From Actinoplanes sp. TBRC 11911 (lineage in GTDB: Bacteria; Actinomycetota; Actinomycetes; Mycobacteriales; Micromonosporaceae), in contig NZ_JABBNC010000008.1 in assembly GCF_012933445.1 (NCBI RefSeq), forward strand, positions 62,001-126,000: a stretch of DNA of 64,000 nt. Direction: 5' to 3'. The first letter of the stretch is position 1. Every line of letters starts with the position of its first letter. Positions 7,177-57,300 of this stretch are shown here, piece by piece. Made by a program: the position numbers and the translations under genes. The notes beneath the pieces were generated by a model that did not search any database, was not told the origin of the DNA, and saw only the letters and a list, made by a program, of their open reading frames with translations.

Positions 7177-9054
7177 ATGCCCTGGACCAGCGCCGTTCCC
7201 GAGATCATCGCGGCCGCCAAGATGATGCAGGACGATCTTCCGTTCTCCGACGAGGCGGATTTCGCCGACGCGCGTCGAGGCTTCCTCGGCGCCCGTTCCC
7301 CGGCCGCCGTGTCCGCGGCCGACGGGCGGGTCGTGTGGGACGCCGACGCGTGGGCGGGCGTGCTGGACGGCCCGCGTCCCGACACGGTCAACCCGAGCCT
7401 ATGGCGGCAGAGCCAGTTGGTCGCGATGCACGGGCTCTACGAGGTGACCGAGGGCGTCTATCAGGTCCGCGGGATGGACCTGTCCAACATCACGATCGTT
7501 GAGGGACGCGACGGGGTCCTCGTGATCGACCCGCTGATCTCGACGGAGACCGCGGCCGCCGCGATGGAGTTGTACCGCGCGCACCGCGGCGACCGGCCGG
7601 TGACCGGCATGATCTACACGCACAGTCACGTCGACCATTTCGGCGGCGTCCGCGGCGTCCTCACCGACGACGACGTCGCCCGCGGCGTCCCGGTGATCGC
7701 CCCGGCGGGCTTCCTGGAGGCCGCCATCTCCGAGAACGTCTACGCCGGCACCGCGATGGCCCGCCGGGCCGCCTACATGTACGGCGCCGCGCTGCCCGCG
7801 GGCGTCACCGGCCAGATGGGTGCCGGGCTGGGCATGACCACCTCCACCGGCACGGTCAGCCTGATCCCGCCCAGCCTGGACATCACCCGGACCGGTCAGC
7901 AGGAGACCGTCGACGGCGTCCGCATCGTCTTCCAGCTCACCCCGGGCACCGAGGCGCCCGCCGAGATGAACTTCCTGTTCCCGGACCGGCGGGCGCTGTG
8001 CATGGCCGAGAACGCCACGCACAACCTGCACAACCTGCTGACCCTGCGCGGGGCCGTGGTCCGCGACCCGCACGTCTGGGCGAACCACCTGACCGAGGCG
8101 ATCGAGCTGTTCGCCGACGCGACCGACGTCGAGTTCGCCTCGCACCACTGGCCGACCTGGGGCCGGGACCGCATCGAACGGCTGCTGTCCGAACAGCGCG
8201 ACCTCTACGCCTACCAGCACGACCAGACCTTGCGGCTGCTCAACCAGGGCTACACCGGCCCGGAGATCGCCGAGATGCTCACGCTGCCGCCGGGGCTCGA
8301 GTCGGCCTGGCACACGCACGGCTACTACGGCTCGATCAGCCACAACGTCAAGGCGGTCTACCAGCGGTACATGGGCTGGTTCGACGGGAACCCGGCGCAC
8401 CTGTGGCAGCATCCGCCGGAGGCGGCGGGCCGCCGCTACGTCGACGCCATCGGCGGCCCCGACGCCCTGCTGGCCGCCGCCCGGCGCGCCTACGACGCGG
8501 GCGACTTCCGCTGGGTCGCCGAGCTCGTCAACCACCTCATCTTCGCCGACCCATCGCACGCGGACGCTCGCGCCCTGCAGTCGGCGGCCCTCGAGCAGAT
8601 GGCTTTCGGCGCGGAGAACGGCACCTGGCGCAACTTCTTCCTCACCGGGGCAACCGAACTGCGAACCGGATCCACCGGCACCCCGACCACCCCGGCGTCG
8701 CCCGACGTGATGGCCCAGCTGACCCTCGGGCAGCTGTTCGACAGCATGGCCATCCGGGTCGACGGCCCCCGTGCGGCGACCTTGCGCTCGGCAGTCGACT
8801 GGACCGTGACCGGCGCGGGAGGCGATGAGCGGCACTGGTCCCGGCTGGCCAACGGGGTCCTCGTGCACGGCGCCGGCACCGGCCGCGGCACCGCCGACGC
8901 CCGCGTCACCATCGGCCGAAGCGCCCTGCTCGCCCTCGCCGGCGGCGCCGGCATCCCGGACGACCTCGCGATCGCCGGCGACGCCGCGGCACTGGACACC
9001 TTGCTGGGCGCCCTCGACCAGCCGGACCCCGCCTTCGCCGTCGTCACCCCCTGA
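7177..9054 (+). CDS. Alkyl sulfatase, SdsA1-like metallo-beta-lactamase-fold hydrolase
   Basis: 625 residues. Hydrolyses the sulfate ester of alkyl sulfates such as SDS in characterised relatives. The zinc-binding motif THSHVDHFGG lies at residues 148-157; further metal-site regions are AENATHNLHNLLTLRG (about 280) and FASHHWPTWGRD (about 316). A helical dimerisation region follows, then a C-terminal SCP2-like domain (about 500-625), so all three domains of SdsA1-type enzymes are present. No signal peptide is obvious. A strong AGGAGG lies just before ATG 7177. Monocistronic; a 536-base gene-free stretch follows. Confidence 0.88.
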   Translation: MPWTSAVPEIIAAAKMMQDDLPFSDEADFADARRGFLGARSPAAVSAADGRVVWDADAWAGVLDGPRPDTVNPSLWRQSQLVAMHGLYEVTEGVYQVRGMDLSNITIVEGRDGVLVIDPLISTETAAAAMELYRAHRGDRPVTGMIYTHSHVDHFGGVRGVLTDDDVARGVPVIAPAGFLEAAISENVYAGTAMARRAAYMYGAALPAGVTGQMGAGLGMTTSTGTVSLIPPSLDITRTGQQETVDGVRIVFQLTPGTEAPAEMNFLFPDRRALCMAENATHNLHNLLTLRGAVVRDPHVWANHLTEAIELFADATDVEFASHHWPTWGRDRIERLLSEQRDLYAYQHDQTLRLLNQGYTGPEIAEMLTLPPGLESAWHTHGYYGSISHNVKAVYQRYMGWFDGNPAHLWQHPPEAAGRRYVDAIGGPDALLAAARRAYDAGDFRWVAELVNHLIFADPSHADARALQSAALEQMAFGAENGTWRNFFLTGATELRTGSTGTPTTPASPDVMAQLTLGQLFDSMAIRVDGPRAATLRSAVDWTVTGAGGDERHWSRLANGVLVHGAGTGRGTADARVTIGRSALLALAGGAGIPDDLAIAGDAAALDTLLGALDQPDPAFAVVTP

Positions 9055-9590
9055 ATCGCCCGAGTAAGTCCTAACCGTGGTGGTAGGCGGCGAGTGACCT
9101 GTGGCCGGTGGCGTGGTGGTGCCGGAGCTGAGGCGCTGTGGCGATCCGTTCCTGGCCGGGCGGTCCCGCTATGTGGACGCCGCGGTCACATCGTGGATTT
9201 TTGTGAACCTTGGAGAGTTGTGCCCACATACGAGCCATAACTCTCCAAGGTTCACATTCGGCCGGAGAAAGCTGTCGGGCGAAAGCCTCGTTACGTGACA
9301 AAGACACACTCTACAATGGACGTCGGTCTCATATCGCGGACGGTAGGTCCCATGATGCGGGCGCGGGTCTCAGCAGGTGGTCGCCCATCTCACGGAATCG
9401 AAGCGCCGCGCGCCGAGCCCACCTGTCCAGCGGCCCAGCCGATCCGATAAATCTCGGGAAATGTCGGATATGCGAGAGGGCTGGCGGACGGACGGTGATT
9501 AGATCGCTGACTCGCCTACGGCCACTGACTCGGCTCAGGACCTACTCGTCTGGACCGACTTCCGCTGCGACGGTTCATGATTGCCGGGTG
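9055..9590. other. Gene-free stretch holding repeat copy A
   Basis: No protein gene is supported. Reading frames run through the stretch in continuity with the next gene, but they cross the repeat element and their translation resembles no protein. It contains repeat element copy A (about 9185-9475), described separately. The ~110 bases before the next start (9480-9590) presumably hold its promoter. Confidence 0.6.
9185..9475 (+). repeat. Dispersed structured repeat, copy A
   Basis: Begins near CATCGTGG and a T-run. It has a perfect 17-base inverted repeat, GTGAACCTTGGAGAGTT at 9203-9219 and its complement at 9239-9255, enclosing the 19-base loop GTGCCCACATACGAGCCAT. About 170 bases of shared sequence follow, ending in a second hairpin with arms TCCGA (9443-9447) and TCGGA (9464-9468). 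Related copies lie at 26647-26940 (opposite strand) and about 56750-56960. No open reading frame is conserved between copies (copy C has an in-frame stop). It could be a non-autonomous mobile element, a remnant of an insertion sequence end or a structured RNA. Confidence 0.8.
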
Positions 9591-26536: not shown

Positions 26537-26646
26537 CCGCGTCCGCTGGCTGCCCCTCGACGGTCGGTGTCTGTCGCCCGGTCCGGGTCCGGGAGGCGGT
26601 CGGCGCAATGGCTAGAAGCGCCATGCCCTCAAATCCCGTCGATCAT

Positions 26647-26940
26647 ATCCGATATTTCGGGTTATCGGCGTAGCCTGGATGGGCCGATGCACCGTCGGGC
26701 TGAGCGAGTGACCCCGGGCGCTCCCATCTTGTGGGACCAGCGACCGCATACTGAGACAGGCGACCAAGTCCTGGACCCAGCTTCCGCAATGTGAGACCCG
26801 CGTCCATTATGGAGTGAGTTTTGCCCGGTGATGCGGCCTTTGCGCGGCAGGCTTTCCCGGCCAGACGTGAACCTTGGAGAGTTATGGCTCGTATGTGGGC
26901 ACAACTCTCCAAGGTCCGCGAAAAGCCCACGATGTGGCTG
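26647..26940 (-). repeat. Dispersed structured repeat, copy B
   Basis: Inverted relative to copy A. GTGAACCTTGGAGAGTT at 26867-26883 pairs with 26903-26919 (15 of 17 matching), and the 19-base loop is identical to that of copy A once reversed. The body matches copy A and especially copy C. The far end has the hairpin CCGATA (26649-26654) / TATCGG (26663-26668), corresponding to the distal hairpin of copy A. Located between convergent genes. Confidence 0.8.
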
Positions 26941-26963
26941 CGATGTCCCACCCAGCGGGAAGG

Positions 26964-56582: not shown

Positions 56583-57300
56583 CAAGCGCCCGGTCAACCT
56601 TCCCACCAGATCGCGGCCGCCGTCGTGGCGCGCCGAGGAGACCATTGGCCGAGTCGGTTTAGTGGCAGCCGCACGTGCCGCACAAGCACGGCGACCGGGC
56701 TGCTCGACGCGCCGGGCCATCCCACTGACTGGGACCACGCCGTCGCATCGTGGGCTTTCGGTGAATCTTGGAAACTTGCGCCCACATGCGAGCCCCAACT
56801 CTCCAAGGTTCACTTCAGGCCCGAGAAAGCCGCCGGGCGAAAGCCTCATAGCGCGACAATTGCTCTCTCCACAATGGACGCCAGTCTCACATGACGGACG
56901 TCGGGTCCACGACGTGGTCGCCGGTCTCGGTATGCGGCCGCCAGTCCCACATGATGGAACACCACGCGCCACCTGCCCGGTGTAGCGGGCCGGAGGCCGG
57001 ATCGCCGCGATGCCTGGGGTCACCGGCATGAAACTGGCGGCACGGCAACCCGGCGGCGCGGCGCTGCACGGCAACGTGGTGGCCCAGCTGGTCACCAAAA
57101 ATGGGCCATGCGGGGGCGGCGCCTAGCCTCCGATGCCCGTGGTGTGACCCGGTGTGCCACTTGCTTCGGGGTGTCGCGGTGGGCGCTACGCGCGCGCCGC
57201 GGTGGGCACCGGCCGCCGAAGGGCCTTCGCGCGTCGTTCAGCGCTCCGACCCGCGTCGCCGATCCCGCTGAGCCCCGCTACCCGGGCGTCGCCGTCGGCG
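56583..57300. other. Gene-free stretch with repeat copy C
   Basis: Between the 3' ends of the copper ATPase gene and the convergent DUF4126 gene. No coding sequence is supported. It contains repeat element copy C (about 56750-56960). In the remaining ~340 bases (56960-57300), very GC-rich, I see nothing. Confidence 0.55.
56750..56960 (+). repeat. Dispersed structured repeat, copy C
   Basis: Same orientation as copy A. Left arm GTGAATCTTGGAAACTT (56761-56777) against right arm AACTCTCCAAGGTTCAC (56797-56813), 14 of 17 pairing, with a loop differing at a few places. The following ~150 bases match copy B closely (CACAATGGACG, GTCTCACAT, GGTCGCCGGTCTCGGTATGC). The distal hairpin of copies A and B was not found. 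The translation corresponding to copy A is interrupted by a stop, so the element is not a conserved gene. Confidence 0.75.

What the first reader, a model, noticed from the sequence alone, without database searches (positions are those of the whole stretch)
9185..9475. Three dispersed copies of an undescribed hairpin-bounded element
Copies at ~9185-9475, 26647-26940 (inverted) and ~56750-56960 share ~200-290 bases with no conserved reading frame. Each starts with a 17-base inverted repeat (perfect in copy A) around a 19-base loop that is identical in two copies. Copies A and B end in a second hairpin (9443-9468 and 26649-26668). All lie between genes, two of them between convergent 3' ends. 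Terminal hairpins, both orientations and no transposase suggest a non-autonomous mobile element, an IS-end remnant or a repeated structured RNA.
Basis: seen in the sequence. Interest (0 to 1): 0.72.

Follow-up and report, generated by a model that had tools for sequence, protein, structure and literature searches.

The report
Orphan MITE family with conserved palindrome
The three repeats belong to a large family of small non-coding jumping-DNA elements in this bacterium; the enzyme that probably moved them is no longer found in its genome, and in four copies a second small element has landed exactly in the middle of their conserved hairpin.

Summary
Copy A is a 498-bp unit (9056-9553); B and C are older, eroded copies. 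A hairpin pattern hits 172 places in this genome and none in the other 353 family genomes searched. Complete copies end in terminal inverted repeats ACGAGTAAGTCCTAACC next to CTAG. One copy interrupts another repeat family, whose uninterrupted members give a natural empty site with a 4-bp duplication. The same ends bound ~1-kb elements coding an IS982-family transposase in relatives; no IS982 gene was found in this genome. So it is an orphan MITE family, in a younger and an older class. It differs 4-6 times less than the rest of the core, without covariation; function unknown, a DNA-protein site being my best guess. All four full copies of a separate 197-bp element lie at the exact centre of this hairpin loop, in both orientations, with a 3-bp repeat, in hosts 74-90% alike. 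That geometry is known for REP-targeting ISs. New member of a known kind.

The parts
9056..9553 (+). Element A, full unit including degenerate CTAG-like target duplications (TCGC 9056-9059, CTGG 9550-9553); one base separates it from the stop codon of the alkyl-sulfatase-like gene 7177-9054
   Evidence: TIR matches with 5 and 4 mismatches in 21, the only two with 6 or fewer in the whole window; alignment with 30 genomic copies; Pfam of the neighbour gene
9060..9076 (+). Left terminal inverted repeat (family consensus ACGAGTAAGTCCTAACC)
9533..9549 (-). Right terminal inverted repeat
9163..9476 (+). Conserved non-coding core of copy A
   Evidence: profile positions 2-322 of 322, E 2e-108
9202..9256 (+). 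Conserved palindrome: 21-nt arms, 13-nt loop CCCACATACGAGC (9223-9235); the 197-bp element M2 sits at the central ATA (9228-9230 here) in other copies
   Evidence: conservation; M2
9163..9401 (+). Six copies of a degenerate ~20-bp motif (GGTCYCACATNGCGG-like), read by eye at about 9163, 9184, 9325, 9345, 9366, 9387 (steps of 20-21 bp within each group, two before and four after the hairpin)
   Evidence: direct repeats D1-D3; spacing and number read by eye, not tested against chance
26644..26960 (-). Copy B, old class, core only; no TIR found
   Evidence: profile E 7e-58; 23.6% from consensus; TIR scan at background level
26866..26920 (-). Palindrome of copy B, loop identical to A
   Evidence: sequence, alignment A2
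56732..56964 (+). Copy C, old class, partial core (profile positions 14-246); no TIR found
   Evidence: profile E 4e-50; TIR scan
56760..56814 (+). Palindrome of copy C; left arm decayed, right arm and most of the loop kept
   Evidence: sequence, alignment A2

Best explanation
A non-autonomous TIR transposon (MITE), about 490 bp plus target duplication. It was mobilised in trans by an IS982-family transposase that cuts at its ACGAGTAAGTCC ends and duplicates a CTAG-like target. It amplified in this lineage in a younger and an older class of copies and is now an orphan, because no IS982 transposase is found in the genome. Shown: the TIRs, the dispersal, one empty site with a 4-bp duplication, identity of ends with IS982-bearing elements in relatives, no detectable IS982 gene in this assembly, strong conservation of the internal palindrome. 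Inferred: that an IS982 transposase moved it, that it was lost after the last wave, and that the palindrome is kept as a sequence-specific DNA site, needed in cis for propagation or bound by a host protein.
For: 172 hairpin-pattern hits in the genome, 87 forward and 85 reverse, 0 for the reversed-pattern control; 138 catalogued copies in fetched stretches, 24 rows with both TIRs (two rows are one element), shortest 498 bp. Natural empty site: the copy at G000 C9:101921 interrupts a member of another repeat family (M3); of 21 uninterrupted M3 alignments across the junction, 18 have one 4-base gap there (CCAG in 15, CTAG in 2, CCCG in 1), while the filled site has CCAG on the left and CTAG on the right. 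The same TIRs with CTAG flanks bound 984-1053-bp elements in relatives; seven such TIR pairs in G071, G025 and G217 enclose IS982 (NF033520) matches over the curated cut-off (coordinates compared); the G071 protein scores 183 bits against a cut-off of 130. NF033520: 0 matches in G000, with matches over the cut-off in three of the four other genomes of the same call. Intergenic bias: of 119 copies with both neighbours, 55 convergent, 57 tandem, 7 divergent; none inside a predicted ORF.
Against: Similarity to the IS982 elements is limited to about 17-21 bp of TIR; the core has no match in the 57 loci from other genomes then held, so it is not a simple internal-deletion derivative. 74 of 138 catalogued copies have neither TIR at 6 or fewer mismatches in 21. 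There is only one clean empty site; its two duplication copies differ by one base, and 3 of the 21 alignments there are irregular. Some TIR pairs in relatives are 291, 738, 790 or 1257 bp and were not examined for genes. The protein search (0 in G000) had no positive genome in the same call. The assembly is a draft of 97 contigs, so an unassembled transposase copy is possible.
Confidence: 0.87

Rival explanations
1. A repeated structured RNA or transcript-level regulatory element that the TIRs merely carry: the hairpin is transcribed and works at the RNA level (for example 3'-end protection or termination).
For: The whole unit folds better than shuffles as RNA (z -5.1); hairpin very conserved; 55 of 119 copies between convergent genes; one terminator-like stem with a T-run at 9180-9196, just upstream of the hairpin (1 found, 0.4 in shuffles).
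Against: Hardly any covariation: 26 predicted pairs, 2 with any double change. No Rfam family at threshold; the one weak hit, a microRNA model on the hairpin at 25 bits against a threshold of 83 (E 0.002), I take as chance likeness of a long hairpin. No sigma-70-like promoter in the A region (other promoter types not covered). No orientation bias in tandem regions: 29 of 57 on the genes' strand.
Confidence: 0.1
2. A hairpin-dependent single-strand element (REP/RAYT or IS200/IS605-like, PATE-like) in which the hairpin is the transposase-recognised end.
For: Long palindrome in most copies; many intergenic copies.
Against: Ends are long TIRs with a 4-bp target duplication, which those families lack (recalled). 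The palindrome is internal and its loop is conserved as sequence.
Confidence: 0.03
3. The palindrome is conserved without selection, by gene conversion between copies or by low mutability.
For: Many near-identical targets exist for conversion; in young copies unique variants in the hairpin are only mildly reduced (17 seen, 27 expected), and over all 86 copies 19 seen against 26 expected, P 0.09.
Against: Conversion would have to stop at the hairpin borders (inference); old copies keep the loop as well as the arms, with 11 unique variants against 32 expected. The young singleton rate is lower in the hairpin for all four bases, so base composition does not explain it.
Confidence: 0.25
4. Moved by a transposase of another family that happens to share these ends.
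For: No IS982 gene in the genome; only TIR-level similarity to the IS982 elements; TIR pairs of other lengths in relatives were not examined.
Against: In the seven TIR pairs of three genomes that I could check against the family search, IS982 was the enzyme inside.
Confidence: 0.1

Closest known systems
MITECca01, IS982-derived MITE of Cardinium cOegib (PMC9769881; passages seen)
   Same: IS982-type ends, no transposase gene, mostly intergenic or in other mobile elements, very high copy number (169 copies reported), lineage-specific spread
   Different: About 240 bp, and its parent IS is still present there in intact copies; here about 500 bp, parent not found, internal conserved palindrome, nested insertions by other small elements
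REP palindromes hit by ISs at a fixed point, e.g. ISPsy8 at the symmetry axis with a 3-base repeat; also IS1397, ISKpn1, IS621 (PMC1525189; Results section read and passages seen)
   Same: A second element (M2) sits at the dyad centre of a dispersed palindrome, 3-bp repeat, all full copies at the same point, either orientation relative to the palindrome
   Different: The target here is the internal palindrome of a MITE, not a REP; M2 is a 197-bp element without a transposase gene
Bacterial MITEs with internal motifs such as Correia elements, RUP, ERIC (PMC2229807; abstract and section list seen)
   Same: Small, non-autonomous, dispersed, with secondary structure and possible protein-binding motifs
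   Different: Described in other hosts; their sequences and ends were not compared here

Membership tests
MITE (miniature inverted-repeat transposable element) | Terminal inverted repeats | tested here: met
   23 distinct copies with both TIRs at 6 or fewer mismatches in 21 (24 rows, one element twice); a left TIR in 44 and a right TIR in 44 of 138; neither in 74 of 138
MITE (miniature inverted-repeat transposable element) | Target-site duplication / empty site | tested here: met
   One natural empty site, 18 of 21 alignments with a single 4-base gap, CCAG/CTAG; one insertion only
MITE (miniature inverted-repeat transposable element) | Short and without a transposase gene | tested here: met
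   Complete copies 498-1322 bp; of the long ones read, two (L105, L117) carry nested elements and one (L106) expanded arms
MITE (miniature inverted-repeat transposable element) | Many dispersed copies | tested here: met
   172 hits of the hairpin pattern; 97 hits of an independent 3' pattern
IS982-derived MITE | Same ends as an IS982-family element | tested here: met
IS982-derived MITE | Parent IS in the same genome | tested here: not met
   NF033520: 0 in G000, over the cut-off in three of four other genomes of the same call; protein search 0, without a positive genome in that call
IS982-derived MITE | Mobilised by that transposase | not testable with these tools
   needs a transposition assay
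Structured ncRNA family (Rfam) | Match to a known family or covarying stems | tested here: not met
   0 at gathering threshold; 2 of 26 pairs with a double change
REP / IS200-IS605-type element | Hairpin at the element end, no TIR, no target duplication (recalled definition) | tested here: not met
   TIRs and 4-bp duplication; hairpin internal

The most novel reading that the evidence does not exclude
The 55-bp palindrome inside this MITE is a sequence-specific protein site that stays under selection after insertion, so the family has become a scattered set of binding sites in the chromosome, rich between convergent genes. The same palindrome is a landing pad for a second, hairpin-centre-specific mobile element (M2).
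Probability: 0.25. Interest if true: 0.65.

Novelty: new member of a known kind. Interest (0 to 1): 0.5.

Why it matters
It shows a bacterial MITE at very high copy number without a detectable transposase, in two age classes and with its own guild of nested elements. M2 at the exact dyad centre in four diverged copies extends palindrome-targeted insertion, known for REP sequences, to the internal palindrome of a MITE. The hairpin, 4-6 times less changed than its surroundings, is a concrete, testable case for telling a cis-requirement of transposition from domestication as a host binding site.

Tried and rejected
Tc1/IS630-type element: considered because CTAG targets are recalled for IS630; the three DDE_3 matches over the cut-off in this genome were not examined further once the shared ends proved to belong to IS982 elements. 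Intrinsic terminator at the palindrome: not found; the only terminator-like site in the A region is a small stem at 9180-9196 upstream of it, left as support for the RNA rival. RNA family: no support. Core as part of an IS: no match of the core profile up to E 10 in the 57 loci from other genomes then held. Plasmid, phage and viral relatives: none (by blastn with 321 bases of A; by an exact pattern). The 60-genome BLAST gave two matches of 35-40 bp outside the own genome, taken as chance; it scored at most 12 candidates per genome.

When the constraint acted: from the first singleton counts I leaned to constraint during amplification only; fuller counts show reduced change on terminal branches too, clearly in old copies, so I do not claim that separation. 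Age classes: with 85 copies no copy lies between 12% and 15% from the consensus; with 114 copies and a slightly different consensus four do. Literature: only search listings were seen, apart from three papers opened; no title or abstract start in these listings names this repeat, and no paper in the library holds both 'miniature inverted-repeat' and 'Micromonospora'.

Full report
What was claimed. Three dispersed copies of a hairpin-bounded, non-coding repeat at 9185-9475, 26647-26940 (inverted) and 56750-56960.

The repeat is real and is a large family. BLAST with copy A in the window's own genome (G000, 9.66 Mb, 97 contigs) scored 40 of 346 first-look candidates and gave 40 places at 85% identity or more, besides short hairpin self-matches. 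A 32-base pattern from loop and right arm, up to 3 mismatches, hits 172 places (87 forward, 85 reverse), control 0. The same pattern is in 1 of 354 genomes of the family, the own one. An independent pattern from the 3' part of the core hits 97 places. From the fetched stretches I catalogued 138 copies; a few rows may be pieces of one copy (two rows are).

The true unit. Aligning 30 oriented copies shows a conserved core of about 320 bp, GC-rich variable arms with tandem repeats, and terminal inverted repeats CTAG-ACGAGTAAGTCCTAA. The TIR pattern (2 mismatches allowed) has 58 hits in G000, control 0. In the catalogue 44 copies have a left TIR and 44 a right one at 6 or fewer mismatches in 21; 24 rows have both and 74 neither. 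Complete copies run from 498 to 1322 bp. Of the long ones that I read, L105 and L117 carry nested elements, L107 an insert in the loop, L106 and L121 expanded arms. In the window A is complete (9056-9553), and its TIRs are the only two TIR-like sites with 6 or fewer mismatches in 64 kb; B and C lack TIRs.

It moved. Copy C9:101921 interrupts another repeat (M3, ends AACTGTTCAGCTG). Of 21 alignments of its joined flanks to uninterrupted M3 copies across the junction, 18 have one 4-base gap there (CCAG in 15, CTAG in 2, CCCG in 1); one has two 2-base gaps and two are irregular. The filled site has CCAG on the left and CTAG on the right. So the target duplication is 4 bp and CTAG-like, and CTAG is not part of the element. 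This is one insertion; no second clean empty site was found among the 24 rows tested.

The likely engine. The TIR with CTAG is found in 72 of 354 family genomes. It bounds elements of 984-1053 bp in several of them, and of 291, 738, 790 and 1257 bp in others that I did not examine for genes. In G071, G025 and G217 seven pairs enclose an IS982 transposase over the NF033520 cut-off (coordinates compared); the G071 protein scores 183 bits, cut-off 130. G000 has 0 matches to NF033520, while three of the four other genomes in that call have matches over the cut-off; the protein search also gave 0, without a positive genome in that call. The mobilising enzyme is therefore inferred, and absent from this assembly.

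History. Distances from the consensus fall into two classes: of 85 full single-piece copies 46 lie at or below 12% and 39 at 15-32%. With 114 copies the dip remains but four copies lie in it. Old copies have eroded arms; a few keep a readable right TIR. B is 23.6% from the consensus.

Context. With my own crude gene caller, 119 of 138 catalogued copies have both neighbours: 55 convergent, 57 tandem, 7 divergent, 0 inside a predicted ORF; the 51 gaps between genes in the window are 12, 27 and 12. In tandem regions 29 of 57 copies lie on the genes' strand. This fits loss of insertions near promoters and gives no hint of strand-specific function.

The hairpin. To avoid picking copies by their hairpin, I used those found by the independent 3' pattern. 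Of its 97 hits, 90 have the loop and right arm with 5 or fewer mismatches in 32; of the other seven, two have only a one-base shift in the loop, three are cut by contig ends and two have lost it. 86 copies were usable as single aligned pieces. In 36 old ones the 53 hairpin columns differ from the old consensus in 92 of 1838 cells (5.0%), the rest of the core (pattern columns left out) in 1494 of 7717 (19.4%); in 50 young ones 41 of 2591 (1.6%) against 1079 of 11617 (9.3%). Arms and loop are both conserved and changes are rarely compensated (2 of 26 predicted pairs with a double change), so the sequence rather than a fold is kept. Variants unique to one copy are 17 against 27 expected in young copies, 11 against 32 in old ones and 19 against 26 over all 86 (P 0.09); shared variant types are 0.15 per column against 0.62 in young copies and 0.40 against 1.23 in old ones. 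On trees built without the hairpin columns both internal and terminal changes are reduced, internal more. So constraint acted during amplification and probably afterwards; gene conversion is not excluded.

A second element targets the palindrome. A 197-bp non-coding element (M2) has 4 full copies in G000 (99-100% identical over the 195 bases searched) and one partial copy; five further matches are short (17-32 bp) and at chance level. All four full copies lie in the hairpin loop at the central ATA, which is repeated on both sides; three are in one orientation and one in the other. Host cores are 74-90% identical while the M2 copies differ by 0-2 of 197 bases, so these are independent insertions or later exchanges, not one composite copied around. 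The partial copy abuts a hairpin arm of a damaged core (read by eye). A different ~150-bp insert sits in the same loop of another copy. ISPsy8 has the same geometry in REP sequences, symmetry axis and 3-base repeat (PMC1525189, Results section read). The left end of M2 has a distant match in G013 (78% over 59 bp, which scored 2 candidates per genome); no transposase-bearing parent was found.

Known or new. An IS982-derived MITE at similar copy number, MITECca01, is in print (PMC9769881, passages seen), with its parent present. I found this family in none of the collections searched and named in none of the paper listings, which are keyword searches. It is a new member of a known kind; the unexplained part is why the internal palindrome is so well kept.

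Noticed in passing
L288, L289, L290, L291 (full copies) and L292 (partial, about 1505-1590), G000: M2, a 197-bp non-coding element whose four full copies all sit at the dyad centre (ATA) of the repeat's hairpin loop, in both orientations; a related short element may lie in G013 (L299, about 1365-1565, by eye). No transposase parent found.
   Followed up: partly
L105 2468-3054, L117 1592-2055, L108 1713-2422, L124 680-1205 and others: M3, a third repeat family (ends AACTGTTCAGCTG; 22 with both ends, about 330-710 bp when not interrupted; 11-bp flanking repeats in 8 of 22). Its target looks like CCRCNNNGYGG by eye, like the ~21-bp-spaced motif of the core; 14 of 22 lie in cores, but the stretches were chosen around cores.
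   Followed up: partly
L107, 808-958: A ~150-bp insert with AGAAGACT-type ends in the same hairpin loop, flanked by the direct repeat CATACGAG.
   Followed up: no
L164 (G006), 959-1249: A 291-bp element with the same IS982-type TIRs but without the core; G006 has no IS982 match over the cut-off, so it may be another orphan MITE.
   Followed up: no
Contig ends of G000: C46, C24, C26, C52, C68: Copies or TIRs lie at contig ends, so the assembly seems to break in or near these repeats and the copy count is probably a lower bound.
   Followed up: no
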